A DNA stretch of 64,000 nt, taken from NCBI GenBank assembly GCA_019915015.1, contig JAHBBC010000020.1, positions 248,001 to 312,000 of the forward strand, written 5' to 3'. Positions 40,728-64,000 of this stretch are shown piece after piece. The notes below the pieces were generated by a model, which did no database searches, had not been told where the DNA came from, and saw only the letters and a program-made list of their open reading frames with translations. The stretch comes from Auriscalpium vulgare. Its lineage: Eukaryota; Basidiomycota; Agaricomycetes; Russulales; Auriscalpiaceae. The position numbers and the translations under genes were made by a program. Within the stretch, counting starts at the first letter, position 1. Each line of letters starts with the position of its first letter.

Positions 40728-40738
40728 ACCGAACTCAA

Positions 40739-41340: not shown

Positions 41341-41654
41341 TCACTTCCTCTCATGCTTAGCAGCTTGTACATCATAGTCATCCATAATGCAGCTATAATA
41401 CAATGGTTGTATACCACGTACGGGTCTCTGATGGCTAAGACTTGAGCAAGGTCAACACGGTCACGTGCCCGAAACTCGTTCTCTGCACAAGTCAATAACA
41501 CCTAGCACCTTGGTGTCAGACGCGTCCCGACCGCTCGATTTGCTTTCAGAACATACTACGTACACTATGACACACACTGAGCACAAGAAAACAATTTATT
41601 TCAGCCTTAAAGGCTACAATATACACGACTGAGGATACGAGGGGGAAGTGGCGC

Positions 41655-43004: not shown

Positions 43005-43274
43005 GTCGTTTGAAGGCGGGACGGCAAAAAGGTGCGGGCAAGGGAAGGGGAGGGGACGAGACTCTTGGATTCGCGCCGAGGTTCAAGACTGGTTCAAGGC
43101 GGTCGGGGTCTGAAAGCGCGTCTTGTTGATCGCACCGAGACCGGTCTCGTAGACTTACTTATTGGAGCTCCGCCGGGTCATTCCGTTGTGGGTTCAAGGC
43201 AAAGGATGCCCTAGAATGAAAATTACAGTATATAGACGAAGCTGGAATGAATATTACAGGGCGTACGTTTGAGC

Positions 43275-45303
43275 CTAATTCTTACCACCCCAGAGCTCCC
43301 TTTCCCGACGAAGAAGCCACTCCCGGTCCTCCTGGAGCTTGCCATACTTAGAAAGCCTCGCCAGTTGCCTCTCCCAACCCTCACCGTCGGCGCCGTCCAA
43401 AGAATCACACTCCTCCGTCGACAAGTCGCCTGCGGGTCGCATGCCGTGTCTCACCCAACGAAGCAAGCCGCCGGGACAGTATTGCGTGAACGAATACCTC
43501 TTCTCGCCCGGTTGAATTGGTAGGTTGCCGTGTCGAAGGCCTGCGGAGGAGAGGAGAATGGTAGAGCCTGCAGGGAAGCGGACCCGCAGGCCCATGTCCC
43601 AGAAGTATAACTGCCCTCCCTTGTCCGCGTCGAAGTTGCCGAAGGCCGTGATGGCGCAGGCAAGGCTTGGGAAGTTTGTACAGTCGTTGTGGTCGAGGGT
43701 CGTCGTGTCGGGGCCCAGGTTTGCAGTCGCCGTGGGGTACGCGCTGGTCTGGAAGGGAAGTTCTAGGTTCGGGTACTCCTCGCAGAGGTCGTACAGGCCT
43801 TCTCGCATGTGCTGGTAGGGCTGTGGAAAAAACGCGGAGAGACCGCCTACCTCGCAGTTAGCTAAGGCCACGGCAATGGAGCATGCGGACGTACGGCTAG
43901 CATGGCCGGCGTATCGCCCGAGGTCCTTCGATTTTCGCAGTCGCTCCACCACCGCCTGGCGGCCCTTCGTATGGCGAAGCGTTCCAGGCACCTAGCTCAC
44001 GATGAGCCAGCCTCCCTTCTGGAGAGACGATACGCTCACCGTTTGACCTCCGCCGTACGACAGGCCGAAGGAGAGGGCAGTAAAGTTGCCCCGACGGTGG
44101 CGGACCAGCTTCTCAGGGAAGGCGCGGTGCTTCTCGCCAAACTTGCGCGAGGTCTCGAAGAGGGTTGCTACGCGCCCGGCGGTGGCCCTCCATGAGTCGT
44201 TGAGGGGCCGATCCTCGTCGTCCTCGGGGGTTCCCAAGAGGACGGCAATGATCCGCTCCTCAACGTCGAGGATGGCATAGGTGTCGCTGAACTTCGCTAT
44301 GAGCTGCGCATCTCTAAATGAAAAAAGCCGTCACGCACCGTCCATTCCATGCAAACTCTGCGAACCCCATCTCATCCAGTTCCGCCCCCGTCCACGGCTC
44401 GTCCTGAAAGCTTCCGAGGCGTCGAACCGTGTACGCGCCCTTTGTGATTGCATATTCATAGGCGTCGGCCTCAACGTCGTAGACTTTCGGTGCAGCGTGT
44501 CGCCATGCAAACGACGGGTCATGGATCTCTGTTAGGGGGTTCTTGCGCGCAGCGGCCTCATGGCGATCCCTCTGCCGGCGTTTCCTCTTGGCGAGTTTCG
44601 AGGACGCCTTCGTCTTGCCACCGCCCGAGGCAAACCCCGGGCCCTCTGCGCGTTGCAGAGTATTGCTTTTGGTGGGATCCTCTGTAGAGGGGCGATGGTC
44701 TGAGTCTCAGATGGGTAGGAACTGCGCGACACGCCCGCACCTGCTGCCTCTGCCCCACCGCCGTTCAGAGCTACCTTACGCCGCTTGTCCACCTCGACCG
44801 CGCCGGACATCGAACTGCCTTGGAGCCTAGCCTTTTTTGCAGCCGCTTGTCGACGCCGCCTCTTCTGCGATTGGGAGAGTTCGGGAGTTGGACCACCCAG
44901 CTCGTCGCGACGTGCCGCTGGCGTACCGCCCATGGAAGGCCGCGCGCCGTCGGCGCATGGGCTTGTAGGGCGGGTGGAAGGGGTGGAAGGGGCAGGGGAA
45001 AGGGCTGTGGGTGAGTAAAAAGCGTCCATGTCCAGAGGGTCGGCGTCGGGGGCGTCCTCGTCCAGCCAACCAAGATGCAACTCCGCGAGCACGCGGTGGA
45101 GGTCCGTTGCTGCCGCTATCTGGTCGTCGCGCTCCACGGCCTTCTCCAGGAGACGTCCATAGTTTAGATTGGTTTGAAGGGGCTGGGTCGACGGGATGGC
45201 GGCGTAGACGCGTCCAGTACGGGTAATTCGCAGCTACCAGACGGCATGTCAGTAGAATAGAGCGGAAATAACGATATTGCACTACGTTTGGGCGGCAAAT
45301 CAT
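43275..45303 (-). CDS. TET/JBP-family dioxygenase, outer KDZ copy
   Basis: Mirror of 57923-59951 with the same exon plan and all catalytic residues. The one difference noticed is synonymous (CCT/CCC in LSPAPSTP). Since the transposase of this copy is broken, this enzyme would act only on behalf of other copies. Confidence 0.85.
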
Positions 45304-47062
45304 ATTGGTCAACCTGCGTTGGACGTTTGTCAGATCTGTGTGAGGCGGGGCGGAAATGTAAAAAGCAAAAGCGAACAGACGCGCTCTACCATCACGACGC
45401 GTCTGGGCCCTGGAGGGACCCTTCCGCATCGAGGAGCAGGAGGCGACAAACCCGGTGAAGAAAGAACGTGGGCGTGCGCGACGCGTCCGGGGCACCGCGA
45501 CGCGTCTGGGCCCTGGAGGGACCCTTCTGCATCGCGGAGATTTGGACGGCGCAGAACGGATTGGAAAAGGATCTGTCGGTAGAGGGACTCACTTTGATGA
45601 TCGTTGAATAGGGAGGACCCTTGGGCGCGCGTCTTATACGTGCTCAGCGTTGTGGCCGTTGCTTGGCCGTCGGCGGCGGCGTCCAAGCGACCGTTTGTCA
45701 ACCAACCGGACGATGCCGTGACGCCGAGACAATGGCGCTCCTGGACGCGCGACTTTGCGTGGCCGGCTGCCGTTCGCTACCAACGCCCCCATATCATCCA
45801 CATGAGAACCCTCAACCGTTTCACATCAACACGTAGTATATATTTCGCATATGACACTCTTACTGTAGACTAAATACGAGGTCGAGGTGCTGCTGGGATG
45901 GTCGTCGCCTTGTGCACGTCGTCCGGTTGCGCCCCGGAATCTGCGGGAATCCTGATGCGAAGCAGTGACATAGTCTATTAAAACCAATATTGAATCCACC
46001 CAATCCACCGCTGACGTCGAACAATGCCCCTTGCGACCGCATTGCCCCAGTATGGCCGAGAGCCGTCTGCTTTGTAGTGAATGGCGGGTAGGTCGGTTAC
46101 ACGTCGAAAAGGCCTGCCTCAGCGCCGAAATAAACAATAGAAGCATCACTACTTACCTCGGTATACCAGCTGGGGTTGTCAAAAGCGCCGCGTAAGGGTC
46201 CCCTAGTCCAGTTAACCACCCGTCTTGCGTGGATCACCGACGCAAGCAGGAGACGGCTCTGTGGCGACCAACAACAATTTGAACGTCGTAACATGCCCCG
46301 ATTTATGAACACGTACCTTTGGGTTTCCAAATTGACCTCAATAACGTTGCAAGCAAGTCGCAAAAGCACTGAGCCGTCCGTCAGTCACTTGACTCTGCGC
46401 CGTTGTTGACCGCAGCAAAGCTGGAAAAAAATGAGCGGGATTTGGTCAAAGGGTATCCATGATTGAATATGAGGACCCGGTTAGCGTTGGATGGGCCGGA
46501 CCAAGGACAGGAGCTGGTTTTCGTGATAAGCGGCTGCACCATTGTCGCGTTGTTCCGTTGTTGCTCAGTAGGCGAATTTTGAATCGAGGCAGTCAGAAAC
46601 CATAGGAAGAAGGAAGAACGTCCGTAACATAGACCGTTTTCAATGCGCGCCTTGTGCCTGGACCGATGCACCGTGAGTGCGGTCTGACGAAGAGTGATAG
46701 AGTCGATGAAGGACGAGCGCACGACGCGGCGCGTTGTGAGTATAGGGCTTGGAGCTCAGTCCTAGTGCTTTACAGTGCCTTCACTGCGACACCCACACAC
46801 TGCCCCCGGAACTGAATCATCTGGTACATATGTACATATATTGCTGCAATCCAGCTTCCTGTGGCTTTACGGTGCTTGTTCTCTCAAAGCCGAGGGCTAC
46901 CGAATCACTGTCGGGGATCTCGGGCATCTCTCTAGCAGCAGCCCATCCCTCACAACTTAGCTGTACCAGCCGAGGGCTTTTCATTCACAATTCGATGTCA
47001 AGAAGTCATGTTTCACAGCAGCTATATACGTTTTACAAAAAGCGGATGACGCCCAGGCCCTC
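45304..47062. other. non-coding stretch of outer KDZ element
   Basis: Mirror of 56164-57922. No gene recognised; one substitution noticed (GCATAT here, GGGAAA context in the inner copy, near 45848). Confidence 0.5.
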
Positions 47063-48272
47063 TCAGCGCCTTCCCCGCACATGGACGAGACCCTCCTCCA
47101 AAGCCAGCGCATAAGCCCGATCGGCTGCCCCCTTCGTCGAGAACTTGCAGTGTACGTTGAGCGGAATGCCGAGCACAAGGCCCGCCATGGCCCCCCTACT
47201 GGGACATCAGGTGGTGTTCATGAGCCTGTGAAGGGGGCGCACCAGTTTGGGAAGACACCGGTTTTCAGGCCGGCGAAGACGACATACCAATGCTTCCTAT
47301 GGCCTCTGCAGCCATGGGGGCACGCCGTGGGAGGAGCAGCTGCGGAAGGGTCGCTGTACTTGCGGGCCTCATCCTGTTGCTTGCGTCGCTCGGCCGCCTC
47401 CTGCTCGCGGCGTGCAGCCAGCTCGAACTCCCTGCGATCAGCTTCCTCCCGTCGAGCGGCAGTCTCCTCCCGTTCCTTGCGCTGAGCCTCCTCCCGGTCG
47501 CGGCGGTCACGGGCCTCATAGTACGCGCGGATCTGCTGAGCGCGCTAGGACGTTTCTCAGTCTTGAACAATGTCACAGAGAACACCGTTACTCACCTCTT
47601 CTATCGTGACTGGGCCCAACGCCTTCACCTCCCCGGCGGCCAGCGCCCGCCCCCATTCCCGGATGGCGCGCTCCTCGGACCTGCTCTTCCGGTACTTGAC
47701 TTCCCCCTCCTTGTATCCCACCACCTGTCGAACGGCGTCGTCCCTGATTGAGGTGAGTCCTGTGTCGTCAGGTTATGTACCGAGCTTACCAGTCGTAGAG
47801 TCCGGGGACGAAGCCGCGGTAGACGACCGTGTCGAGCTTGTAGGGTCGCCTCGTCGAAACCGCGGGTCCTTTTGAAGCCGGAGGAGAGGTGGGGGGAGGT
47901 GCTGAGGGGACGGAGGGAGTAGGCTCGGCCTGTGACCCGGTCTGGGCGCTGTCGTTGGCCTTGAATGCCCAAACCTGCGCGCCCGGGACGCCCTGCGAGG
48001 CCTCCACCGCGCGGTACCTTGTACCGTCGTTAACAAACGGCTTATTGAATAGAGTTTTAAGAGAAAGCTTACCAGGCCTCCATGTGAACAGTGCCCCCGT
48101 TCTTGTCGACCTGGTAATGGTGTCCGTTGCTTTGCAGGGGCGGGCGGGGACTCTTGCGATCTTCGACGGTGCTGAGGTCGAGATTCGCCATCACCAGAGA
48201 CAAATCGTCTTCCGGCGAGATTTGAGCCTCGATCTCGGGGTCCTCCAGGGTGTTGATGGGATGGCCTGCCAT
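47063..48272 (-). CDS. triple hybrid-binding-domain-like protein, outer KDZ copy
   Basis: Mirror of 54954-56163, 333 residues, frame intact. Two substitutions noticed: Val for Ala in WYRAAEAS and Val for Asp in ALGPDTIEE. Domain reading under the inner copy. Confidence 0.65.
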
Positions 48273-48447
48273 GGTTGGCGTAGGTGGGAGCCTGGAGGGC
48301 GAGGACGGTGGTGAGGGTGTTCGTTTCACGGCGATGTGGAACTGTTTGCATCTGTTTGATTGATCGAGGCGAATCTCATACATCCGGATCTGAGGCACAA
48401 GTACGTTATATTCAACTTGGCAGAACATAAGTACACATATACTATTG

Positions 48448-50586
48448 CTACAACGTTGCCTGCTCCAAAGCCTCCCCGAGGCGTACCATCTCATCGTTCA
48501 ATTCGTCATGTTCCTCGATCTCCAGCTCCGTCTCTACCGCGCCGGACTCGTGTTCGCTGCTGCTGACGACGGCGGTCGGTCCACCGATCGGGCCCGTGTA
48601 CCCGGCGAGCCGGTAGATTTGCTGCAGGCGCTGTCGGTGGCGATCGTTGACCTTCGCGCGGCGACTGTGTAGATGTCGTATGTGGTCCGCAAGCCGTGGG
48701 TCTTCGCTACTAGCAGCCTCCTCCGCCCGGTGGTACGCGTCGTCCTCAGCGTCGAGCCATGCATGGAGCCTTGGAACTTCGACGTTCAGGCGGTGGATCT
48801 CTTCGCGCGCGCGGTGAGTCTTCAGGTACTTTGTGAGCGCCTCACGGTTCGCAGGTTGGGTCCACGGCTTCTCGAGTACGTCGTGGCGGGACTCCTTCAA
48901 TAGGTCGAACTCACCAAGCCAGCCGTAGTTCACGACCTCGCTGTAGGGCAGTATTCGACGTGGGGGGTCTTGTTGCGGGGCGAGGCGGTTGTAGTTGTCA
49001 ACGGCGGTGCGGACGGCGGCCGAGCGGCGGGTGATCGCCGATGAGATATGCTTCCGCATTTTGTAGCCTATGGTTTTGTCAGGACGGAGTACAGAAAGGA
49101 TCATGCCGCCACGCACCTGTGCCCGATATGTTCGCCTTCGCGAGCTCAAACAACCTCTGCACCACCAAGCCTTCGAGCTGGTCCACTGCTTTGTCGAACT
49201 TCGTCCTCTGCAGGATGCCTAGGTTGCGCTGATATTCGGGAGTCTCGGGCGTCCAGGGCTCTGCAAGGCCGAGTCGACGCTCGAGGTCGGCGACAACGTT
49301 TTGCGCCAGGGAGAGCTTGGCGACCGCGGCGCGGCGTTCTGCCTCCTTGGCCGCCTTTCCCGCCTTCTTCAGGACGCCCTCGTCGAAGCCGTCGGTGAAG
49401 GACGAGGGTGTGACGGTCACCCAGTCGACCGTCGAGACCCAGGCGTACTTCTGACTAGCAAACCTGTTAGAACGTTTGGAAACATCGTCAGGGGGGGCAC
49501 TTACTTTGCATTATCGAGGTCGATGAGGGCCTGGACATAGGCCTGCTCGTGCTCATCGGCTGCTGGCACCTTCTTGGCGTCCTGTAGATAGTTCCGTTCC
49601 GCAACGATCCACGACTCGAAGTCCTCGTCCGTGTAGCCGGCAGCTGCCTTGAAGAGGCGGACTTCAGGCTCGTAGTCGCTGAGTACCGCGATTGCTTGCT
49701 TGTAATTTTTGAGCAGAAAGTTTGCTAAGAGATTGGTGAGTTGGCGGTCGGTACCTGAGGAGTTCATTTACGTACAGAGCTCGGCGTATTTGTCTTCATC
49801 CCACTGCTGGATGTGGAGATGTATGAACATCTTCCAGTGGAAGTGAGATGCGTGGCGGATGAGCCTCGCCACGGTGCCGAGGCTCGAGAAGATCCGCTCG
49901 CACGTCTCGAAATCCTCGAGGCCAAGGCCGGTTCGGAAGAGCGGGTGGTGGCAGAGTTGACACAGGCGGTTATGGGCGTATCCGTGGAAGGCGTTGACGA
50001 TGAGCACGAGGTTGAGAGCTTGAGCGGAGTCCTTCAACGAGGTCGCCCGTACCGTCGTGTCCATGGAGCACCCTATATCGTACCCGACGCACTGGGCCTC
50101 TCCAAACTCACGCATGTACGCGTCGAGAATGGCTAGAGGATATTTCGCCCTCAAAACAAGCATCAGAGCCACGGGAAATGAGACAAGGATAAGGTCAGAA
50201 CTCACAATTCCCCGCTGCGAATCATTTCTTGCACCAGCTCGACAAGTCCATGTCGACAGGCACCTACGAAAATGCCAGTCTGTTCGAAGACGGCTGCCGT
50301 TTTCCCTGTCGACGTTGCATTCTCTGTGACCCACCGGTCGGTGCATTTGGTGGAGCTGCCGACGTCGGTCGGAAGCCCCTCCGTCATGTCGGGACTGGGC
50401 AGGTCGCCCGCGACGTCCTCGACGTCTTCCACAGCGGCGCGTCGCTTTCGCGGCTTCACCTCGTCCTTGAAGGCGTCCACCTGTTCCGGGGTCTGGAAGT
50501 AGCTGCTGTTGAACGTTCGCTCGTCCGTGTGCCCGACGCCATTGAGCCGCTTGTGGGAGCTACATCCGTCCATCGCGTGCAGCCGT
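48448..50586 (-). pseudogene. KDZ transposase, C-terminal part cut off by the inner insertion
   Basis: Holds the mirror of inner residues from about 327 on, including MDGCSSHKR, YDIGC, HNRLCQLCHH and the C-terminal helices. The inner element enters at ARLH, just before the first catalytic aspartate. The matching N-terminal part lies at 62488-63739. No full transposase can be made from this copy unless the whole inner 11.9 kb is removed. Confidence 0.9.
50579..50586. repeat. 8-bp target site duplication, left
   Basis: GCAGCCGT directly before the inner element, repeated at 62488-62495 directly after it. The uninterrupted site is seen once, inverted, as ACGGCTGC at 52640-52647. Confidence 0.95.
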
Positions 50587-51188
50587 CACCTGATGGTACC
50601 TCTTACCTAAGATAAGAAGCCCGGGTAGTGTGTGTGTGATGGCCAGGCTAACTAGCATCATTAGCTCAAAATCATTGACTGCAGCACTTCCCCCAGCGTT
50701 CGCACCCCGGCAGATCAAGAGATCTCGAGAGATAAGTGTGATAAGGGGTGAGCGGGAGATAGTCCCGGATCAGAGCCATCGGGCACGTGCCCGTCCCGTT
50801 GCCGACGTTCCCGCGCCTGCCGTCACCGGCGCCAACTGTCCCGACAGCGCGCTAAGGGTGCTCGTCGTCGTCACCGACGACGAGCTCGACTGTCCCGCCG
50901 TCCCCTCCCGTATATAGTAACATGTATATACCATTGGAACCGCATTTTCAAGGGGAACACGATGGTGTCACTCCCTAAGCGAGCGGGGCACGGGGGAAGG
51001 GGCAATATGGGGTATTCCCGCAGCTGGGAAAAGAACCAACATGACGTAATCAGAAAATTTGCGGGGCCGGCGGCAGCGCGGGTCCGGGCGCCCCGTCGCC
51101 CTTGCCGATTGATGCCGCGGCGCCCCGCCGGCGCCTGTCCCGCTCGCCGTGCCAAGGCCCGTCGTCGCCGTCGTCGACGATGAGCTCG
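50587..51188 (+). repeat. left terminal inverted repeat, inner KDZ element
   Basis: 602 bases. Contains two palindromes: GGGCACGTGCCC (50781-50792) and an 11-base-arm hairpin GCTCGTCGTCG/CGACGACGAGC (50860-50885, loop TCAC). A second, related GTCGTCGACGAT motif closes the repeat. These may be transposase-binding or strand-folding sites. A TATATA-like stretch lies near 50912-50929. Confidence 0.9.
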
Positions 51189-51395
51189 GTCTATACCTCC
51201 TTTCTCTTTATAGTCAACATGTATACTCAGCTAGTGAATGCAGTAGTTAATAGTAATTGTGAGGGGAATGATTGATCAAATCAACACGTGCCGTCAACAA
51301 ACGCGTCTATCACGTGTGGCGTGGAACACGCCGCGCGACAGAGTCGCGGACTCGCCCTACCTCCGCCTACCACCTCTGCTCTCACCACTTCACGC

Positions 51396-54300
51396 ATGTA
51401 TTCAGCTTCAAGAAAGAATCGTTCTACATCTAGCAGGGTTATCACCTACAATGCCGGCCTTGGTCTTCAAGCAGCCGGCTCGAAGATGTCTCTAGCATCC
51501 ATCCAGACGCGGAAGAGGCAGCTTGAGTCCGATCGCAAGTCAGAAGAACATCGTACGTCGCCTATTAACTGTTGGCAAACTTACTCTGACTTGGTACATG
51601 TAGGACTTACGAAGCAGATTCGGCGCAACCTCGCAGAGGCTGGCCTCGAGCTTGGCGGCTTCGACGTATCCCTCGACTTCACCATCCCACCCCTACTCGA
51701 TGTGCCTATGGAAACAGACAACCCCGACGACAACGAGAGCTGGGTAGACGAAGATGAGGGAGAGGATGGTGAGCTTCGTGCCACCACGGACGAGGACCGG
51801 GCACTGTATCGGGCTAAGTTGCATGCAATGATATCGTGCGTCCTTTCCCCTTCGTCTGCTGGCCTCCCGACCTCATCCACATATTATTTGTTAGGCTATA
51901 TGGCGGCAAAATTCGTTCCAGGGACCACCGAACGCGCACGGACCGGCGTCGCGCTGTCCACAGCGAGTGGGCGGCCATCTCCCCCAAACTGGTCGACGCG
52001 TACCTCTCATGGAGGTATCCCCAAGGCGAAGACTCTTCCTACCGCCCCGATGAACCCAGTGCACAGCAGCCGCACATGTTTTTTGTGGTAGCCATCGGCC
52101 TTGATGGTGCGTGTCCCGCCGCTCTTTCCAGACTTTCCTGACGTTGCCTCAGGCTACGAGCCCGCTCGCGAGATCGTCCAACGTGCCGGCGACGAAGCAA
52201 ATGTATCTCTCGTCCTCCACGGCCTCCTGGGAGGATCCCCTTTCCTGCCCGAAACAGCGTTTTCCATCCAACTCCTCGAATTCTATCACCAGCTCCGCCG
52301 CCGGCATCAGGTTGGAATCCAGGGTTTTATGAAAGTGGTATGCTCGACACATTCGGTCCGTGCAGCCCCCCGTGTTGCAGCGAGTACTAATCTCTGTCTA
52401 GATATCCTACTACCCAGCCCTGCAGGAGAGATTCTCCCAGGCGTTCGACGCGTACTTTGACTTGCTGGAGCGGCTTCAAAAGCGCGCCGATTGTGCGCTG
52501 GGACGCGATGCCGAAGGGTGGCGCCTACGGAACTCCTGCCCCTGCTGCAGCTTCAAGGTGAGATTGTCCTCCTCGAGGGCAGGCCATGTTGCTGATTGGG
52601 CAAGCAACAGCAACCTGACGAGCCGGTTTTGGTGCCCGCACGGCTGCACGCGATGGACGGATGTAGCTCCCACAAGCGGCTCAATGGCGTCGGGCACACG
52701 GACGAGCGAACGTTCAACAGCAGCTACTTCCAGACCCCGGAACAGGTGGACGCCTTCAAGGACGAGGTGAAGCCGCGAAAGCGACGCGCCGCTGTGGAAG
52801 ACGTCGAGGACGTCGCGGGCGACCTGCCCAGTCCCGACATGACGGAGGGGCTTCCGACCGACGTCGGCAGCTCCACCAAATGCACCGACCGGTGGGTCAC
52901 AGAGAATGCAACGTCGACAGGGAAAACGGCAGCCGTCTTCGAACAGACTGGCATTTTCGTAGGTGCCTGTCGACATGGACTTGTCGAGCTGGTGCAAGAA
53001 ATGATTCGCAGCGGGGAATTGTGAGTTCTGACCTTATCCTTGTCTCATTTCCCGTGGCTCTGATGCTTGTTTTGAGGGCGAAATATCCTCTAGCCATTCT
53101 CGACGCGTACATGCGTGAGTTTGGAGAGGCCCAGTGCGTCGGGTACGATATAGGGTGCTCCATGGACACGACGGTACGGGCGACCTCGTTGAAGGACTCC
53201 GCTCAAGCTCTCAACCTCGTGCTCATCGTCAACGCCTTCCACGGATACGCCCATAACCGCCTGTGTCAACTCTGCCACCACCCGCTCTTCCGAACCGGCC
53301 TTGGCCTCGAGGATTTCGAGACGTGCGAGCGGATCTTCTCGAGCCTCGGCACCGTGGCGAGGCTCATCCGCCACGCATCTCACTTCCACTGGAAGATGTT
53401 CATACATCTCCACATCCAGCAGTGGGATGAAGACAAATACGCCGAGCTCTGTACGTAAATGAACTCCTCAGGTACCGACCGCCAACTCACCAATCTCTTA
53501 GCAAACTTTCTGCTCAAAAATTACAAGCAAGCAATCGCGGTACTCAGCGACTACGAGCCTGAAGTCCGCCTCTTCAAGGCAGCTGCCGGCTACACGGACG
53601 AGGACTTCGAGTCGTGGATCGTTGCGGAACGGAACTATCTACAGGACGCCAAGAAGGTGCCAGCAGCCGATGAGCACGAGCAGGCCTATGTCCAGGCCCT
53701 CATCGACCTCGATAATGCAAAGTAAGTGCCCCCCCTGACGATGTTTCCAAACGTTCTAACAGGTTTGCTAGTCAGAAGTACGCCTGGGTCTCGACGGTCG
53801 ACTGGGTGACCGTCACACCCTCGTCCTTCACCGACGGCTTCGACGAGGGCGTCCTGAAGAAGGCGGGAAAGGCGGCCAAGGAGGCAGAACGCCGCGCCGC
53901 GGTCGCCAAGCTCTCCCTGGCGCAAAACGTTGTCGCCGACCTCGAGCGTCGACTCGGCCTTGCAGAGCCCTGGACGCCCGAGACTCCCGAATATCAGCGC
54001 AACCTAGGCATCCTGCAGAGGACGAAGTTCGACAAAGCAGTGGACCAGCTCGAAGGCTTGGTGGTGCAGAGGTTGTTTGAGCTCGCGAAGGCGAACATAT
54101 CGGGCACAGGTGCGTGGCGGCATGATCCTTTCTGTACTCCGTCCTGACAAAACCATAGGCTACAAAATGCGGAAGCATATCTCATCGGCGATCACCCGCC
54201 GCTCGGCCGCCGTCCGCACCGCCGTTGACAACTACAACCGCCTCGCCCCGCAACAAGACCCCCCACGTCGAATACTGCCCTACAGCGAGGTCGTGAACTA

Positions 54301-54778
54301 CGGCTGGCTTGGTGAGTTCGACCTATTGAAGGAGTCCCGCCACGACGTACTCGAGAAGCCGTGGACCCAACCTGCGAACCGTGAGGCGCTCACAAAGTAC
54401 CTGAAGACTCACCGCGCGCGCGAAGAGATCCACCGCCTGAACGTCGAAGTTCCAAGGCTCCATGCATGGCTCGACGCTGAGGACGACGCGTACCACCGGG
54501 CGGAGGAGGCTGCTAGTAGCGAAGACCCACGGCTTGCGGACCACATACGACATCTACACAGTCGCCGCGCGAAGGTCAACGATCGCCACCGACAGCGCCT
54601 GCAGCAAATCTACCGGCTCGCCGGGTACACGGGCCCGATCGGTGGACCGACCGCCGTCGTCAGCAGCAGCGAACACGAGTCCGGCGCGGTAGAGACGGAG
54701 CTGGAGATCGAGGAACATGACGAATTGAACGATGAGATGGTACGCCTCGGGGAGGCTTTGGAGCAGGCAACGTTGTAG
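51396..54778 (+). CDS. KDZ (Kyakuja-Dileera-Zisupton) transposase
   Basis: Ten exons (51396-51552, 51604-51835, 51895-52106, 52153-52337, 52402-52557, 52611-53020, 53077-53450, 53502-53721, 53772-54109, 54159-54778) sum to 968 codons, so 967 residues. Landmarks in order: CPCC cluster (about 308), MDGCSSHKRL with the first catalytic Asp (about 330), KYPLAILDAY (about 453), YDIGCS with the second Asp (about 475), HGYAHNRLCQLCHHP, the Zn-chelating block (506-520), and GLEDFETCERIFSSLG with the acidic third residue (525-541). The C-terminus is long and helical. A second ATG at 51486 is also in frame, so the exact start is open. The intron before exon eight needs the TCTTAG acceptor at 53501. It should excise and insert the element with an 8-bp duplication. 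Confidence 0.9.
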
Positions 54779-54953
54779 CAATAGTATATGTGTACTTATG
54801 TTCTGCCAAGTTGAATATAACGTACTTGTGCCTCAGATCCGGATGTATGAGATTCGCCTCGATCAATCAAACAGATGCAAACAGTTCCACATCGCCGTGA
54901 AACGAACACCCTCACCACCGTCCTCGCCCTCCAGGCTCCCACCTACGCCAACC

Positions 54954-56163
54954 ATGGCAGGCCATCCCATCAACACCCTGGAGGACCCCGAGATCGAGGC
55001 TCAAATCTCGCCGGAAGACGATTTGTCTCTGGTGATGGCGAATCTCGACCTCAGCACCGTCGAAGATCGCAAGAGTCCCCGCCCGCCCCTGCAAAGCAAC
55101 GGACACCATTACCAGGTCGACAAGAACGGGGGCACTGTTCACATGGAGGCCTGGTAAGCTTTCTCTTAAAACTCTATTCAATAAGCCGTTTGTTAACGAC
55201 GGTACAAGGTACCGCGCGGCGGAGGCCTCGCAGGGCGTCCCGGGCGCGCAGGTTTGGGCATTCAAGGCCAACGACAGCGCCCAGACCGGGTCACAGGCCG
55301 AGCCTACTCCCTCCGTCCCCTCAGCACCTCCCCCCACCTCTCCTCCGGCTTCAAAAGGACCCGCGGTTTCGACGAGGCGACCCTACAAGCTCGACACGGT
55401 CGTCTACCGCGGCTTCGTCCCCGGACTCTACGACTGGTAAGCTCGGTACATAACCTGACGACACAGGACTCACCTCAATCAGGGACGACGCCGTTCGACA
55501 GGTGGTGGGATACAAGGAGGGGGAAGTCAAGTACCGGAAGAGCAGGTCCGAGGAGCGCGCCATCCGGGAATGGGGGCGGGCGCTGGCCGCCGGGGAGGTG
55601 AAGGCGTTGGGCCCAGACACGATAGAAGAGGTGAGTAACGGTGTTCTCTGTGACATTGTTCAAGACTGAGAAACGTCCTAGCGCGCTCAGCAGATCCGCG
55701 CGTACTATGAGGCCCGTGACCGCCGCGACCGGGAGGAGGCTCAGCGCAAGGAACGGGAGGAGACTGCCGCTCGACGGGAGGAAGCTGATCGCAGGGAGTT
55801 CGAGCTGGCTGCACGCCGCGAGCAGGAGGCGGCCGAGCGACGCAAGCAACAGGATGAGGCCCGCAAGTACAGCGACCCTTCCGCAGCTGCTCCTCCCACG
55901 GCGTGCCCCCATGGCTGCAGAGGCCATAGGAAGCATTGGTATGTCGTCTTCGCCGGCCTGAAAACCGGTGTCTTCCCAAACTGGTGCGCCCCCTTCACAG
56001 GCTCATGAACACCACCTGATGTCCCAGTAGGGGGGCCATGGCGGGCCTTGTGCTCGGCATTCCGCTCAACGTACACTGCAAGTTCTCGACGAAGGGGGCA
56101 GCCGATCGGGCTTATGCGCTGGCTTTGGAGGAGGGTCTCGTCCATGTGCGGGGAAGGCGCTGA
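54954..56163 (+). CDS. KDZ-encoded protein with three RNase H1 hybrid-binding-domain-like repeats
   Basis: Exons 54954-55153, 55209-55436, 55483-55630, 55691-55983 and 56031-56163 sum to 334 codons, 333 residues. Three segments resemble the RNase H1 N-terminal (caulimovirus viroplasmin-like) fold. Residues 51-88 have HHYQVDKNGG..W...GVPGAQVWAF. Residues 126-182 have DTVVYRGFVPGLYDWDDAV..GYKEGEVKY and REWGRAL. Residues 274-329, the clearest, have WYVVFAGLKTGVFPNW, then HCKFSTKGAADRAYALALEEG. A charged coiled coil (191-252) and a CPHGCRGH motif lie between the second and third. The domain binds RNA:DNA hybrid or dsRNA in RNase H1. No RNase H catalytic domain follows. The role in transposition is unknown. 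Confidence 0.65.
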
Positions 56164-57922
56164 GAGGGCCTGGGCGTCATCCGCTTTTTGTAAAACGTAT
56201 ATAGCTGCTGTGAAACATGACTTCTTGACATCGAATTGTGAATGAAAAGCCCTCGGCTGGTACAGCTAAGTTGTGAGGGATGGGCTGCTGCTAGAGAGAT
56301 GCCCGAGATCCCCGACAGTGATTCGGTAGCCCTCGGCTTTGAGAGAACAAGCACCGTAAAGCCACAGGAAGCTGGATTGCAGCAATATATGTACATATGT
56401 ACCAGATGATTCAGTTCCGGGGGCAGTGTGTGGGTGTCGCAGTGAAGGCACTGTAAAGCACTAGGACTGAGCTCCAAGCCCTATACTCACAACGCGCCGC
56501 GTCGTGCGCTCGTCCTTCATCGACTCTATCACTCTTCGTCAGACCGCACTCACGGTGCATCGGTCCAGGCACAAGGCGCGCATTGAAAACGGTCTATGTT
56601 ACGGACGTTCTTCCTTCTTCCTATGGTTTCTGACTGCCTCGATTCAAAATTCGCCTACTGAGCAACAACGGAACAACGCGACAATGGTGCAGCCGCTTAT
56701 CACGAAAACCAGCTCCTGTCCTTGGTCCGGCCCATCCAACGCTAACCGGGTCCTCATATTCAATCATGGATACCCTTTGACCAAATCCCGCTCATTTTTT
56801 TCCAGCTTTGCTGCGGTCAACAACGGCGCAGAGTCAAGTGACTGACGGACGGCTCAGTGCTTTTGCGACTTGCTTGCAACGTTATTGAGGTCAATTTGGA
56901 AACCCAAAGGTACGTGTTCATAAATCGGGGCATGTTACGACGTTCAAATTGTTGTTGGTCGCCACAGAGCCGTCTCCTGCTTGCGTCGGTGATCCACGCA
57001 AGACGGGTGGTTAACTGGACTAGGGGACCCTTACGCGGCGCTTTTGACAACCCCAGCTGGTATACCGAGGTAAGTAGTGATGCTTCTATTGTTTATTTCG
57101 GCGCTGAGGCAGGCCTTTTCGACGTGTAACCGACCTACCCGCCATTCACTACAAAGCAGACGGCTCTCGGCCATACTGGGGCAATGCGGTCGCAAGGGGC
57201 ATTGTTCGACGTCAGCGGTGGATTGGGTGGATTCAATATTGGTTTTAATAGACTATGTCACTGCTTCGCATCAGGATTCCCGCAGATTCCGGGGCGCAAC
57301 CGGACGACGTGCACAAGGCGACGACCATCCCAGCAGCACCTCGACCTCGTATTTAGTCTACAGTAAGAGTGTCATATGGGAAATATATACTACGTGTTGA
57401 TGTGAAACGGTTGAGGGTTCTCATGTGGATGATATGGGGGCGTTGGTAGCGAACGGCAGCCGGCCACGCAAAGTCGCGCGTCCAGGAGCGCCATTGTCTC
57501 GGCGTCACGGCATCGTCCGGTTGGTTGACAAACGGTCGCTTGGACGCCGCCGCCGACGGCCAAGCAACGGCCACAACGCTGAGCACGTATAAGACGCGCG
57601 CCCAAGGGTCCTCCCTATTCAACGATCATCAAAGTGAGTCCCTCTACCGACAGATCCTTTTCCAATCCGTTCTGCGCCGTCCAAATCTCCGCGATGCAGA
57701 AGGGTCCCTCCAGGGCCCAGACGCGTCGCGGTGCCCCGGACGCGTCGCGCACGCCCACGTTCTTTCTTCACCGGGTTTGTCGCCTCCTGCTCCTCGATGC
57801 GGAAGGGTCCCTCCAGGGCCCAGACGCGTCGTGATGGTAGAGCGCGTCTGTTCGCTTTTGCTTTTTACATTTCCGCCCCGCCTCACACAGATCTGACAAA
57901 CGTCCAACGCAGGTTGACCAAT
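56164..57922. other. long non-coding stretch of inner KDZ element, with a 36-base direct repeat
   Basis: No gene recognised in 1.76 kb, the largest gap in the element. A 36-base unit containing GGGTCCCTCCAGGGCCCAG and ACGCGTCG occurs at 57693-57728 and 57796-57831 with one mismatch, just before the TET/JBP gene. Short frames (57184-57366 and others) lack domains. Confidence 0.5.
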
Positions 57923-59951
57923 ATGATTTGCCGCCCAAACGTAGTGCAATATCGTTATTTCCGCTCTATTCTACTGACATGCCGTCTGGTAGCTGCGAAT
58001 TACCCGTACTGGACGCGTCTACGCCGCCATCCCGTCGACCCAGCCCCTTCAAACCAATCTAAACTATGGACGTCTCCTGGAGAAGGCCGTGGAGCGCGAC
58101 GACCAGATAGCGGCAGCAACGGACCTCCACCGCGTGCTCGCGGAGTTGCATCTTGGTTGGCTGGACGAGGACGCCCCCGACGCCGACCCTCTGGACATGG
58201 ACGCTTTTTACTCACCCACAGCCCTTTCCCCCGCCCCTTCCACCCCTTCCACCCGCCCTACAAGCCCATGCGCCGACGGCGCGCGGCCTTCCATGGGCGG
58301 TACGCCAGCGGCACGTCGCGACGAGCTGGGTGGTCCAACTCCCGAACTCTCCCAATCGCAGAAGAGGCGGCGTCGACAAGCGGCTGCAAAAAAGGCTAGG
58401 CTCCAAGGCAGTTCGATGTCCGGCGCGGTCGAGGTGGACAAGCGGCGTAAGGTAGCTCTGAACGGCGGTGGGGCAGAGGCAGCAGGTGCGGGCGTGTCGC
58501 GCAGTTCCTACCCATCTGAGACTCAGACCATCGCCCCTCTACAGAGGATCCCACCAAAAGCAATACTCTGCAACGCGCAGAGGGCCCGGGGTTTGCCTCG
58601 GGCGGTGGCAAGACGAAGGCGTCCTCGAAACTCGCCAAGAGGAAACGCCGGCAGAGGGATCGCCATGAGGCCGCTGCGCGCAAGAACCCCCTAACAGAGA
58701 TCCATGACCCGTCGTTTGCATGGCGACACGCTGCACCGAAAGTCTACGACGTTGAGGCCGACGCCTATGAATATGCAATCACAAAGGGCGCGTACACGGT
58801 TCGACGCCTCGGAAGCTTTCAGGACGAGCCGTGGACGGGGGCGGAACTGGATGAGATGGGGTTCGCAGAGTTTGCATGGAATGGACGGTGCGTGACGGCT
58901 TTTTTCATTTAGAGATGCGCAGCTCATAGCGAAGTTCAGCGACACCTATGCCATCCTCGACGTTGAGGAGCGGATCATTGCCGTCCTCTTGGGAACCCCC
59001 GAGGACGACGAGGATCGGCCCCTCAACGACTCATGGAGGGCCACCGCCGGGCGCGTAGCAACCCTCTTCGAGACCTCGCGCAAGTTTGGCGAGAAGCACC
59101 GCGCCTTCCCTGAGAAGCTGGTCCGCCACCGTCGGGGCAACTTTACTGCCCTCTCCTTCGGCCTGTCGTACGGCGGAGGTCAAACGGTGAGCGTATCGTC
59201 TCTCCAGAAGGGAGGCTGGCTCATCGTGAGCTAGGTGCCTGGAACGCTTCGCCATACGAAGGGCCGCCAGGCGGTGGTGGAGCGACTGCGAAAATCGAAG
59301 GACCTCGGGCGATACGCCGGCCATGCTAGCCGTACGTCCGCATGCTCCATTGCCGTGGCCTTAGCTAACTGCGAGGTAGGCGGTCTCTCCGCGTTTTTTC
59401 CACAGCCCTACCAGCACATGCGAGAAGGCCTGTACGACCTCTGCGAGGAGTACCCGAACCTAGAACTTCCCTTCCAGACCAGCGCGTACCCCACGGCGAC
59501 TGCAAACCTGGGCCCCGACACGACGACCCTCGACCACAACGACTGTACAAACTTCCCAAGCCTTGCCTGCGCCATCACGGCCTTCGGCAACTTCGACGCG
59601 GACAAGGGAGGGCAGTTATACTTCTGGGACATGGGCCTGCGGGTCCGCTTCCCTGCAGGCTCTACCATTCTCCTCTCCTCCGCAGGCCTTCGACACGGCA
59701 ACCTACCAATTCAACCGGGCGAGAAGAGGTATTCGTTCACGCAATACTGTCCCGGCGGCTTGCTTCGTTGGGTGAGACACGGCATGCGACCCGCAGGCGA
59801 CTTGTCGACGGAGGAGTGTGATTCTTTGGACGGCGCCGACGGTGAGGGTTGGGAGAGGCAACTGGCGAGGCTTTCTAAGTATGGCAAGCTCCAGGAGGAC
59901 CGGGAGTGGCTTCTTCGTCGGGAAAGGGAGCTCTGGGGTGGTAAGAATTAG
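57923..59951 (+). CDS. TET/JBP-family 2-oxoglutarate/Fe(II) dioxygenase
   Basis: Exons 57923-57940, 57993-58485, 58545-58887, 58913-59186 and 59235-59951 sum to 615 codons, 614 residues. The N-terminal third is Ser/Pro- and basic-rich (KRRRRQAAAKKARL). The dioxygenase core holds HRRGNFTALSFGLSYGGGQT, then the iron ligands H477 and D479 in LDHNDCTNFP, H530 in LRHGNLPIQPG, and R541 in RYSFTQYCPGGLLRW for 2-oxoglutarate. The family oxidises methylated pyrimidines in DNA. Having all four residues, it is predicted active. The first exon is six codons and tentative. The third intron would be only 25 bases (GTGCGT..TTTAG). Family members in basidiomycetes are known to travel with KDZ elements. Confidence 0.85.
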
Positions 59952-60221
59952 GCTCAAACGTACGCCCTGTAATATTCATTCCAGCTTCGTCTATATACTG
60001 TAATTTTCATTCTAGGGCATCCTTTGCCTTGAACCCACAACGGAATGACCCGGCGGAGCTCCAATAAGTAAGTCTACGAGACCGGTCTCGGTGCGATCAA
60101 CAAGACGCGCTTTCAGACCCCGACCGCCTTGAACCAGTCTTGAACCTCGGCGCGAATCCAAGAGTCTCGTCCCCTCCCCTTCCCTTGCCCGCACCTTTTT
60201 GCCGTCCCGCCTTCAAACGAC

Positions 60222-61571
60222 ATGGCTCGAACTCGTGGCGGCTCCGCGAAGATGACCAACGAGGCAAAGGAGCGTCGTAAAGCCAAGCAAGTCCGGATGA
60301 CGAAGGCGATTCTCGAGGCGCAAAGGGAGTACTACCTCAAAGCCGGAGAGATTGCGGTGACCCACGGGCGGTGAGTATCGTTATGTAGAGATGACACGCC
60401 ATGCTGACCGCCCTTTAGGTCCCTAGAGTGGGTGGTGGGGCAGTTGCACCTCGGCGGGAGGCGCCTCACGAAGAAGCGTTCGGTTAGCCCCTGGACCACG
60501 TTCCTCAGCCGCCAAATCAAAAAGCTGAACCAGGGTAAGGGTGTCCTCGAGCCACCAATGCGTCCGCTCACCTTCGACGCGTCCACAGGAAAATCGAAGG
60601 GCGAGAAGCTATCCATCAGCCAGTACCTCGAAGAGGATGGGCAGGAGCTGCATGACGCCTACAAGAAGCTCACAAAGGCGGAGAAGGACGCCCTCAAAGA
60701 GGAGGGCGAAAAAAGCCGAGCCGAGAAGGCGGTCCTGCCCATGCGCAAGAGCGAGAAGGCGGTCCAGAAGGACTTCCACGAGACCTTCAAGGCGATCGCA
60801 AACGAGGTGCGTTGACTCTTTTTCTGGGATCCTTTCATTGTGCTCAACAAACTGTAGGTACACGGTGGCCTTCAGCGGACACAGGGCGAGGCCATCATGT
60901 TCGGTGTCCGCGGCGACGTCACGCAATACGGTGCCCCTGAAATCTACGTGTCCCCGAAGGCGAAGGCGTTCCTCGCAAAGGCTTTTGGCATGACGCCTGA
61001 GCAGTTCGCACTCAAGCTAGAGGCGTTCGTACTTGCAGACCTTGGCAACGGTGAGCAAACCCTGACGGCATATACTGGATACCCGCTCACCGTCTGTAGA
61101 TCACACTTCGAGGGCCAAAAAGAGTATGACGGAAGACCAGAGCACTGCACGGAGGTGCATTCAGGATGGGCACGGTGCGCAAACCCTTCGACAGATGGCA
61201 AGCGTCCTGAACTAACTGGCCGGTGTACAGACGCCCTGCTATTCAAGCAAGAGCGTATCAAGCCGGGCTCCCTCAAGATGAACTATGTCAACTACGAGGG
61301 CAAGGTCGTCGAGGAGCACAAGATTGAGCTCCGGGGCTGGCCGCTCTCCGGCCCTGTTCGAAACCCAGGAGGCCTCAAGAGACAGGAGCTCACGACGCTC
61401 CTCCGTGCGTTGGAGAACCAGACCTGCCGATGGGAGGCGATGACTGACCTCGAGGTCGCCGCGCGCATTGAGCGCAACCAAGAGCGCGTGGACCGTGGAG
61501 AGGTGGTATACGTCCACCGCAAGTCCAAGAAGGCTACGTCCAACGCTGTCGCCGGCCCCTCGTCGACCTAG
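60222..61571 (+). CDS. divergent HMG-box protein of KDZ element
   Basis: Exons 60222-60370, 60419-60806, 60858-61050, 61100-61174 and 61231-61571 sum to 382 codons, 381 residues, starting MARTRGGSAKMTNEAKERRK. Residues about 70-150 look like an HMG box: SPWTTFLSRQIKKLN, SISQYLEEDGQEL and YKKLTKAEKDALKEEGE. A second conserved block has SPKAKAFLAKAFGMTPEQF. The C-terminus is basic (YVHRKSKKATSN). HMG boxes bend DNA; here it may shape the transposon ends or bring the TET/JBP enzyme to them, which is inference. A 14-base palindrome CGAGACCGGTCTCG (60077-60090) lies 130 bases upstream in its promoter. Confidence 0.85.
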
Positions 61572-61885
61572 GCGCCACTTCCCCCTCGTATCCTCAGTCG
61601 TGTATATTGTAGCCTTTAAGGCTGAAATAAATTGTTTTCTTGTGCTCAGTGTGTGTCATAGTGTACGTAGTATGTTCTGAAAGCAAATCGAGCGGTCGGG
61701 ACGCGTCTGACACCAAGGTGCTAGGTGTTATTGACTTGTGCAGAGAACGAGTTTCGGGCACGTGACCGTGTTGACCTTGCTCAAGTCTTAGCCATCAGAG
61801 ACCCGTACGTGGTATACAACCATTGTATTATAGCTGCATTATGGATGACTATGATGTACAAGCTGCTAAGCATGAGAGGAAGTGA

Positions 61886-62487
61886 CGAGCTCATCGTCGA
61901 CGACGGCGACGACGGGCCTTGGCACGGCGAGCGGGACAGGCGCCGGCGGGGCGCCGCGGCATCAATCGGCAAGGGCGACGGGGCGCCCGGACCCGCGCTG
62001 CCGCCGGCCCCGCAAATTTTCTGATTACGTCATGTTGGTTCTTTTCCCAGCTGCGGGAATACCCCATATTGCCCCTTCCCCCGTGCCCCGCTCGCTTAGG
62101 GAGTGACACCATCGTGTTCCCCTTGAAAATGCGGTTCCAATGGTATATACATGTTACTATATACGGGAGGGGACGGCGGGACAGTCGAGCTCGTCGTCGG
62201 TGACGACGACGAGCACCCTTAGCGCGCTGTCGGGACAGTTGGCGCCGGTGACGGCAGGCGCGGGAACGTCGGCAACGGGACGGGCACGTGCCCGATGGCT
62301 CTGATCCGGGACTATCTCCCGCTCACCCCTTATCACACTTATCTCTCGAGATCTCTTGATCTGCCGGGGTGCGAACGCTGGGGGAAGTGCTGCAGTCAAT
62401 GATTTTGAGCTAATGATGCTAGTTAGCCTGGCCATCACACACACACTACCCGGGCTTCTTATCTTAGGTAAGAGGTACCATCAGGTG
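61886..62487 (-). repeat. right terminal inverted repeat, inner KDZ element
   Basis: Inverse of 50587-51188 over its full 602 bases, ending CCATCAGGTG directly before the duplicated GCAGCCGT. The 314 bases before it (61572-61885) hold the 3' side of the HMG gene and no other feature. Confidence 0.9.
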
Positions 62488-62495
62488 GCAGCCGT
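62488..62495. repeat. 8-bp target site duplication, right
   Basis: GCAGCCGT, matching 50579-50586. Confidence 0.95.
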
Positions 62496-63739
62496 GCGGG
62501 CACCAAAACCGGCTCGTCAGGTTGCTGTTGCTTGCCCAATCAGCAACATGGCCTGCCCTCGAGGAGGACAATCTCACCTTGAAGCTGCAGCAGGGGCAGG
62601 AGTTCCGTAGGCGCCACCCTTCGGCATCGCGTCCCAGCGCACAATCGGCGCGCTTTTGAAGCCGCTCCAGCAAGTCAAAGTACGCGTCGAACGCCTGGGA
62701 GAATCTCTCCTGCAGGGCTGGGTAGTAGGATATCTAGACAGAGATTAGTACTCGCTGCAACACGGGGGGCTGCACGGACCGAATGTGTCGAGCATACCAC
62801 TTTCATAAAACCCTGGATTCCAACCTGATGCCGGCGGCGGAGCTGGTGATAGAATTCGAGGAGTTGGATGGAAAACGCTGTTTCGGGCAGGAAAGGGGAT
62901 CCTCCCAGGAGGCCGTGGAGGACGAGAGATACATTTGCTTCGTCGCCGGCACGTTGGACGATCTCGCGAGCGGGCTCGTAGCCTGAGGCAACGTCAGGAA
63001 AGTCTGGAAAGAGCGGCGGGACACGCACCATCAAGGCCGATGGCTACCACAAAAAACATGTGCGGCTGCTGTGCACTGGGTTCATCGGGGCGGTAGGAAG
63101 AGTCTTCGCCTTGGGGATACCTCCATGAGAGGTACGCGTCGACCAGTTTGGGGGAGATGGCCGCCCACTCGCTGTGGACAGCGCGACGCCGGTCCGTGCG
63201 CGTTCGGTGGTCCCTGGAACGAATTTTGCCGCCATATAGCCTAACAAATAATATGTGGATGAGGTCGGGAGGCCAGCAGACGAAGGGGAAAGGACGCACG
63301 ATATCATTGCATGCAACTTAGCCCGATACAGTGCCCGGTCCTCGTCCGTGGTGGCACGAAGCTCACCATCCTCTCCCTCATCTTCGTCTACCCAGCTCTC
63401 GTTGTCGTCGGGGTTGTCTGTTTCCATAGGCACATCGAGTAGGGGTGGGATGGTGAAGTCGAGGGATACGTCGAAGCCGCCAAGCTCGAGGCCAGCCTCT
63501 GCGAGGTTGCGCCGAATCTGCTTCGTAAGTCCTACATGTACCAAGTCAGAGTAAGTTTGCCAACAGTTAATAGGCGACGTACGATGTTCTTCTGACTTGC
63601 GATCGGACTCAAGCTGCCTCTTCCGCGTCTGGATGGATGCTAGAGACATCTTCGAGCCGGCTGCTTGAAGACCAAGGCCGGCATTGTAGGTGATAACCCT
63701 GCTAGATGTAGAACGATTCTTTCTTGAAGCTGAATACAT
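62488..63739 (-). pseudogene. KDZ transposase, N-terminal part of outer copy
   Basis: Mirror of inner residues 1 to about 327, five complete exons and the start of the sixth, ending at the insertion point just before the MDG catalytic motif. The constant coordinate sum (115135) with the inner copy shows no indel. It belongs with 48448-50586. Confidence 0.9.
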
Positions 63740-63946
63740 GCGTGAAGTGGTGAGAGCAGAGGTGGTAGGCGGAGGTAGGGCGAGTCCGCGACTCTGTCGC
63801 GCGGCGTGTTCCACGCCACACGTGATAGACGCGTTTGTTGACGGCACGTGTTGATTTGATCAATCATTCCCCTCACAATTACTATTAACTACTGCATTCA
63901 CTAGCTGAGTATACATGTTGACTATAAAGAGAAAGGAGGTATAGAC

Positions 63947-64000
63947 CGAGCTCATCGTCGACGACGGCGACGACGGGCCTTGGCACGGCGAGCGGGACAG
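63947..64000 (-). repeat. start of right terminal inverted repeat, outer KDZ element
   Basis: CGAGCTCATCGTCGACGACGG... matches the inner edge of the 602-base repeat; about 548 more bases should follow outside the window, then GAACTCAA and the rest of the right Tc1/mariner copy. Confidence 0.85.

What the first reader, a model, noticed from the sequence alone, without database searches (positions are those of the whole stretch)
50587..62487. Apparently intact KDZ transposon that carries a DNA-oxidising enzyme, an HMG protein and a putative hybrid-binding protein
Seen: matching 602-bp inverted ends, 8-bp target duplication, four open multi-exon frames. Known: KDZ elements in basidiomycetes often carry TET/JBP and divergent HMG genes. 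Inferred: the element may erase cytosine methylation from its own DNA, escaping fungal silencing, with the HMG protein shaping or marking the ends and the third protein acting on RNA:DNA hybrids. All parts of such a self-demethylating system are present and undamaged in one copy.
Basis: partly seen in the sequence, partly recalled or inferred. Interest (0 to 1): 0.88.

Follow-up and report, generated by a model that had tools for sequence, protein, structure and literature searches.

The report
Mushroom jumping gene with TET-like enzyme
A mushroom's DNA holds a recently active jumping gene, inserted inside a near-identical copy of itself, that carries its own TET-like DNA-oxidising enzyme and two putative nucleic-acid-binding proteins; the general kind is known, but the enzyme's active site differs from the published fungal type.

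Summary
Window 50587-62487 is an 11,901-bp KDZ DNA transposon with perfect 602-bp inverted ends, an 8-bp target duplication and four spliced open genes: transposase, a hybrid-binding-domain protein, a 2OG-Fe(II) dioxygenase and an HMG-like protein. All four genes show purifying selection (dN/dS 0.10-0.33). The dioxygenase gives no Tet_JBP Pfam match, but the model of an 82%-identical homologue matches CcTet, NgTET1, CMD1 and TET2 best. All 114 relatives covering the site have Asn where CcTet has Gly and published Kyakuja-borne AG-type enzymes Gly or Ser: the pocket of conventional 5mC-oxidising TETs. AG-pattern enzymes lie beside KDZ genes in the same genome. The dioxygenase-HMG pair recurs at near-constant spacing in diverged families. 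TET-bearing KDZ transposons and the escape-from-silencing idea are published. Self-demethylation is not shown: CpG transitions are no less over-represented between dioxygenase-bearing copies (4.95-fold, three pairs) than between Copia copies (2.55-fold); the difference is not significant. HMG and GTF2I/MADS readings rest on a low-confidence model. Verdict: new variant of a known kind.

The parts
50587..62487 (+). Inner KDZ transposon copy, 11,901 bp
50587..51188 (+). Left terminal inverted repeat, 602 bp
   Evidence: 0 mismatches to right end
61886..62487 (-). Right terminal inverted repeat, 602 bp
50579..50586 (.). Target duplication GCAGCCGT (left)
62488..62495 (.). Target duplication GCAGCCGT (right)
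51486..54778 (+). KDZ transposase gene, 10 exons, 940 aa (PF18758 + PF18802 CxC1)
   Evidence: (Pfam run on an earlier 906-aa model)
54954..56163 (+). Protein with RNase H1 N-terminal (hybrid-binding) domains, 5 exons, 336 aa; PF01693 in two stretches, a third degenerate repeat by eye
57923..59951 (+). TET-like 2OG-Fe(II) dioxygenase gene, 5 exons, 588 aa; start exon 57923-57940 uncertain
   Evidence: fold of homologue P0001
59235..59951 (+). Last dioxygenase exon with HND (Fe), Asn at H+5, second Fe-His and 2OG-Arg
60222..61571 (+). HMG-like (possibly HMG + MADS-like + GTF2I-like) protein gene, 6 exons, 363 aa
   Evidence: fold of homologue P0119
57687..57836 (.). Two 47-nt direct repeats upstream of the dioxygenase gene; about 42 nt of them also match in C8 and C10 copies
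40739..50586 (-). Outer copy of the same element, part 1
62496..64000 (-). Outer copy, part 2 (continues to 64548, beyond the window)
40731..40738 (.). Target duplication GAACTCAA of the outer copy (left; the right one lies beyond the window)

Best explanation
A recently active autonomous KDZ cut-and-paste transposon of a mushroom related to Auriscalpium. Shown: complete ends, 8-bp target duplications, open transposase gene with KDZ and CxC1 domains, near-identical nested copies, and purifying selection on all four genes. Best supported: the dioxygenase is a TET-like enzyme of a lineage separate from the published AG type, with the conventional TET side chain in the base pocket (Asn at the hTet2 Asn1387 position). 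Inferred: it oxidises 5-methylcytosine in DNA. Inferred: it acts in trans on methylated transposon DNA in general, changing silencing marks so that transposase genes can be expressed, rather than keeping its own copy methylation-free in cis. Inferred: the HMG-like protein and the hybrid-binding-domain protein are element-encoded nucleic-acid-binding partners, the first probably bending or marking the long ends or guiding the oxidase, the second binding RNA:DNA hybrid or dsRNA at the element's transcripts.
Confidence: 0.55

Rival explanations
1. Strict self-demethylation in cis: each element keeps its own DNA free of 5mC.
For: Genes travel together and are conserved; CpG content is not depleted in the copies (observed/expected 1.06-1.07).
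Against: CpG transitions between dioxygenase-bearing copies are over-represented 4.95-fold, not less than between Copia copies, which lack such an enzyme as far as known (2.55-fold; 95% interval of the ratio of the two 0.61-6.1). The rest of the window has the same CpG content (1.03-1.15). In Coprinopsis and Laccaria oxidised cytosines lie in DNA transposons and retrotransposons alike (PMC12730594 section 4.2; PMC8889193 passages).
Confidence: 0.2
2. The enzyme has another substrate (RNA 5mC, thymine, or a CMD1-like chemistry) and serves base hypermodification or RNA processing, perhaps with the hybrid-binding protein.
For: Divergent sequence; no His/Arg at the second base contact; weak Pfam placement; neighbour gene with hybrid-binding domains.
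Against: The closest folds are all enzymes known or solved with 5mC DNA or its products; Asn at H+5 is invariant in the 114 covering relatives.
Confidence: 0.2
3. The enzyme works in transposition itself: it oxidises methylated inverted ends so that transposase and the HMG-like protein can bind, timing excision rather than gene expression.
For: Inverted ends are long and nearly identical within a copy (602 bp 100%, 632 bp 99.8%, about 870 bp 98.5%) while the ends differ by 17-26% between families; the HMG-like gene pairs with the dioxygenase gene at near-fixed spacing.
Against: Long inverted ends are also reported for Cryptococcus KDZ1 with KDZ and CxC1 domains (241 bp; PMC12810828 passages); whether that element lacks an oxidase was not checked. 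No direct evidence.
Confidence: 0.15
4. Accessory genes are captured passengers without a role for the transposon.
For: Transposons capture genes (general knowledge).
Against: dN/dS 0.11-0.33 for the three accessory genes across diverged copies; the dioxygenase and HMG-like genes stay together in several diverged families.
Confidence: 0.04

Closest known systems
TET-plus Kyakuja/Zisupton transposons of Agaricomycetes with AG-type TET (Kojima 2025, PMC12730594: parts 1-4 of 7, figure legends and section 4.2 read; Iyer et al. 2014: recalled, not readable here)
   Same: KDZ transposase plus TET-like dioxygenase inside one complete element; 8-bp duplications as stated there for Zisupton
   Different: Dioxygenase has Asn/Cys, not Gly or Ser/Asp, at CcTet 331/337 and escapes the Tet_JBP profile; 602-bp inverted ends (the Laccaria Kyakuja families there: 7-bp duplications, no inverted repeats); the word HMG does not occur in that paper's main text
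CcTet of Coprinopsis cinerea
   Different: 13-16% identity; Gly331/Asp337 replaced by Asn/Cys, Arg393 by Pro in this protein
Human TET2 / NgTET1
   Same: Side chain at H+5 (Asn1387 / Asp234) as here (passages); aromatic residue at the Tyr1902 position
   Different: No His at the His1904/His297 position; transposon-borne
Cryptococcus KDZ1-3 transposons (PMC12810828, passages only)
   Same: KDZ + CxC1 transposase; long inverted ends (241/139/169 bp); 8-bp duplications for KDZ1, 4-8 bp for KDZ2/3
   Different: The passages read name only KDZ and CxC1 domains; absence of a dioxygenase was not checked

Membership tests
KDZ DNA transposon | KDZ transposase domain PF18758 | tested here: met
   7.8e-69, 232 bits, cut-off 26.6 (on the 906-aa version of the model)
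KDZ DNA transposon | CxC cysteine cluster before the transposase domain | tested here: met
   CxC1 3.9e-6, 27.4 bits, cut-off 26.9
KDZ DNA transposon | Inverted ends and 8-bp duplication | tested here: met
   5 of 5 copies found with both ends
KDZ DNA transposon | Catalytic acidic triad of the transposase | not tested
   residues were not examined one by one
Kyakuja branch of KDZ | 7-bp duplications and no inverted repeats (as given in PMC12730594 for the Laccaria families) | tested here: not met
   8-bp duplications, 602-bp ends; no transposase tree was built, so the branch within KDZ is open
TET/JBP dioxygenases | Match of this protein to PF12851 | tested here: not met
   none at E <= 1 for this protein; 18 of 60 relatives match at E <= 1, best 7e-5
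TET/JBP dioxygenases | TET-type fold | tested here: met
TET/JBP dioxygenases | HxD...H iron triad and 2OG-binding Arg | tested here: met
   H 113/114, D 113/114, H 110/111, R 103/109 among aligned homologues with a residue there; all present in this protein
TET/JBP dioxygenases | Oxidation of 5mC (or T) | not testable with these tools
   needs enzyme assay
AG-type TET (Kojima) | Gly/Ser at CcTet 331 and Asp at 337 | tested here: not met
   Asn 114/114 and Cys 113/114 of rows with a residue there; the same residue correspondence
PE-type TET (Kojima) | HxE instead of HxD | tested here: not met
   HND here; D in 113 of 114 relatives
PU-type TET (Kojima) | Clusters with Pucciniomycete sequences | not tested
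   No PU sequences fetched
RNase H1 N-terminal (hybrid-binding) domain proteins | PF01693 match over cut-off | tested here: met
   6.8e-11, 42.7 bits, cut-off 21, two stretches
HMG-box proteins | Pfam HMG_box/HMG_box_2 match | tested here: not met
   none for this protein at E <= 1; of 8 relatives scanned only P0129, E 0.11, at residues 89-150
HMG-box proteins | HMG-box fold | tested here: inconclusive
GTF2I (TFII-I) repeat | GTF2I fold | tested here: inconclusive

The most novel reading that the evidence does not exclude
Agaricomycete KDZ transposons acquired or evolved two separate TET lineages: the known CcTet-like AG type, able to handle 5mC and 6mA, and a second, unrecognised lineage with the conventional Asn pocket, dedicated to 5mC. 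The second lineage works as a fixed unit in which a multi-domain DNA-binding protein (HMG box, MADS-like and GTF2I-like folds) guides the oxidase to transposon ends, a transposon-borne counterpart of targeted demethylation and a possible non-animal relative of the TFII-I repeat.
Probability: 0.25. Interest if true: 0.78.

Novelty: new variant of a known kind. Interest (0 to 1): 0.5.

Why it matters
It suggests that the TET repertoire of fungal transposons is wider than the standard profile sees: searching this 51.6-Mb genome with one exon of this enzyme gave 106 match rows, the PF12851 profile 17, with three places matched by both (C2:2970, C4:370 and C10:978 kb; one searches by a member and the other by a general profile, so the counts are not like for like). 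The predicted switch from the dual 5mC/6mA pocket to a 5mC-type pocket is a clean, residue-level hypothesis that an enzyme assay can test. Near-identical nested copies make this a good element for asking what transposon-borne oxidases do for their carrier.

Tried and rejected
Assembly artefact for the two copies: rejected, each has its own 8-bp duplication and they are nested, not tandem. Chance open frames: rejected by dN/dS. Passenger genes: rejected as main reading. AG-type and PE-type membership: rejected on active-site residues. RIP-like hypermutation: none visible; CpG observed/expected 1.06-1.07 in three copies and 1.03-1.15 across the window. In the dioxygenase gene a 25-nt intron drawn by eye and the predictor's 82-nt one were replaced by a 52-nt intron after comparison with the C8 copy. 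The HMG-like protein family has no PDB sequence relative at E <= 10 and no GTF2I match in Pfam. Literature: no description of this Asn-type enzyme group or of the four-gene set was found in the held library with the searches (listings, and the passages named in the report); the founding paper (Iyer et al. 2014) is not held, so it may already contain part of this.

Limits of counts: one search returned 118 proteins; 60 of 118 went into A1 and 117 of 118 aligned. One search scored only the 8000 candidates sharing most words and only 7996, so 4 and 11 relatives are lower bounds. In one search I reduced by hand 106 dioxygenase rows to 103 places, 34 HMG-like rows to 18 loci and the listed KDZ rows to roughly one per locus; the KDZ list was itself cut by the tool, so KDZ linkage is a lower bound. 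One HMG-like locus (C2) is split; the piece I kept lies 14.6 kb from its dioxygenase gene, the dropped piece 1.6 kb. Hybrid-binding gene: 2 of 8 diverged loci matched; L030, L032 and L033 reach only 1.5-2.6 kb upstream of the dioxygenase, L031 reaches 4 kb and gave nothing. CpG test: one search used three dioxygenase-bearing pairs and four Copia pairs. Of the three only inner-outer (3 CpG, 0 other transitions) is a proven KDZ element; L036-L037 (10 and 6) and L020-L021 (1 and 0) are stretches around related enzyme genes whose transposon ends were not found. The C27 copy was left out of that count because its 24 indel positions may be assembly errors (with it, family 1 has 9 CpG and 4 other transitions over all three pairs, which share changes); the six L022-L027 copies were left out too, having no transitions. 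No single-copy control was available, so the excess is not proof of methylation. The proteins modelled are Auriscalpium homologues (P0001, P0119), not the window's own spliced proteins.
Full report
WHAT IS THERE. The window lies in a 51.6-Mb, 96-contig genome. The closest proteins are from Auriscalpium vulgare (Russulales), so the host is probably a related mushroom (inference). At 50587-62487 lies an 11,901-bp element with 602-bp inverted ends identical base for base and an 8-bp duplication GCAGCCGT. It is inserted in a second copy of itself: 40739-50586 joined to 62496-64548 is again 11,901 bp, in the opposite direction, with 5 substitutions and its own duplication GAACTCAA. The nested insertion cuts exon 6 of the outer copy's transposase gene. 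Further copies: C27 (99.3-99.9% in the three long aligned pieces, carrying two foreign insertions), C8 (two main pieces 75.5 and 76.9%), C10 (main pieces 71-75%), and partial matches in what was fetched of C2 and C38. C27, C8 and C10 have 8-bp duplications and ends of 602, 632 and about 870 bp at 99.7, 99.8 and 98.5% identity within the copy.

GENES. All lie on the + strand of the inner copy, with GT-AG introns and no internal stop. (1) KDZ transposase, 940 aa, with KDZ and CxC1 domains (run on a 906-aa version). (2) A 336-aa protein with two RNase H1 N-terminal stretches by Pfam and a third degenerate repeat by eye; in the model an intron falls at the Trp of each repeat. (3) A 588-aa dioxygenase; its start exon is uncertain. 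(4) A 363-aa HMG-like protein. dN/dS (Nei-Gojobori) against C8 and C10: 0.113 and 0.103; 0.252 and 0.329; 0.134 and 0.155; 0.109 and 0.134; against the C2 and C38 pieces 0.125 and 0.18 (dioxygenase), 0.163 and 0.128 (HMG-like). One stop lies in the aligned C10 transposase; none in the other eleven comparisons. The outer copy differs by three amino acids, two in the hybrid-binding protein and one in the HMG-like protein.

ACTIVE SITE. Iron ligands H451, D453, H504 and 2OG-binding R515 are present (numbering of the 588-aa model). Five residues after the first His all 114 homologues that cover the site have Asn; at +11, 113 of 114 have Cys. CcTet has Gly331 and Asp337 there (numbering read). Conventional TETs have a side chain at the first place (hTet2 Asn1387, NgTet1 Asp234, CMD1 Asp350) that hydrogen-bonds 5mC N4 and blocks 6mA, and Thr/Ser/Thr at the second (PMC11040006, passages). 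Kojima reports Gly or Ser at the first and Asp at the second for Kyakuja-borne AG enzymes (PMC12730594). The genome's own PF12851-positive enzymes show that Gly/Asp pattern in 3 of 3 aligned, and 6 of 17 PF12851 matches, the L022-L027 group, lie within 10 kb of a KDZ match. So two TET-like lineages lie beside KDZ genes in one genome; that the AG-pattern genes are inside KDZ elements here was not shown. Against a simple 5mC reading: the CcTet Arg393/hTet2 His1904 place is Ala, Pro or Ser in 106 of 108, while the aromatic Tyr/Phe two places before is kept in 107 of 108 (ungapped).

CONSERVED UNIT. HMG-like genes lie within 5 kb of a dioxygenase-like gene in 13 of 18 loci and within 15 kb in 15 of 18; in 12 of the 13 the spacing is 1.55-1.92 kb. 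KDZ matches sit about 8.1-8.3 kb off the HMG-like gene in the outer copy and C8 and in five loci of a diverged group (C2, C23, C28, C44 and a second on C2; 36-38% identity in the HMG-like exon). Density alone would put a KDZ match within 10 kb of about 4% of places; 26 of 103 dioxygenase places have one (lower bound). A hybrid-binding match is found upstream of the dioxygenase, as here, in 2 of 8 diverged loci (L034, L035); several of the other six were not fetched far enough to tell.

THE ESCAPE HYPOTHESIS. Kojima 2025 (parts 1-4 of 7, the figure legends and section 4.2 read) already proposes that TET-bearing transposons escape methylation silencing, and notes that oxidised cytosines in Coprinopsis and Laccaria also cover retrotransposons, suggesting non-targeted action. 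PMC8889193 (outline and passages) reports similar enrichment in both transposon classes. Here, in three pairs of dioxygenase-bearing copies, CpG transitions exceed other C:G transitions per site 4.95-fold (14 of 3550 against 6 of 7525), and in four Copia pairs 2.55-fold (17 of 1604 against 20 of 4821); the difference is not significant. Only one of the three pairs, inner-outer (3 against 0), is a proven KDZ element. That fits past CpG methylation of these copies and shows no shielding, on small numbers. The host has DNA methylase matches at three loci. The most economical mechanism is therefore oxidation in trans, at a time and place not seen here (inference).

KNOWN OR NEW. KDZ transposons with TET-like genes, with 8-bp duplications, and with long ends and CxC1 domains are known (PMC12730594; PMC12810828 passages). 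What I did not find described, with the searches listed under Tried and rejected, is the Asn-type enzyme group and its pairing with the HMG-like gene. Iyer et al. 2014 could not be read, so this is said with that reserve.

Noticed in passing
C27:331937-347014 (L011, L012): This copy carries two insertions of about 0.6 and 2.6 kb that share the same end letters, apparently a second small mobile element family.
   Followed up: partly
L022-L027 (C8, C9, C13, C14), also L020 and L028: CcTet-like AG-pattern enzymes (Gly/Asp pocket) coexist with the Asn-type enzymes in one genome; the near-identical L022-L027 group lies within 5 kb of KDZ matches.
   Followed up: partly
C27 copy, equivalent of 51012-56453: 24 indel positions in a copy with only 13 substitutions: recent frameshifts or assembly errors.
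   Followed up: no
57687-57836: 47-nt direct repeats upstream of the dioxygenase gene, about 42 nt of them matching in C8 and C10: possible binding sites.
   Followed up: no
genome-wide: At least 168 KDZ and 108 RVT_2 (Copia) match rows in 51.6 Mb.
   Followed up: no
P0119 residues 221-311: GTF2I-like fold hint in a fungal transposon protein; no sequence support.
   Followed up: partly
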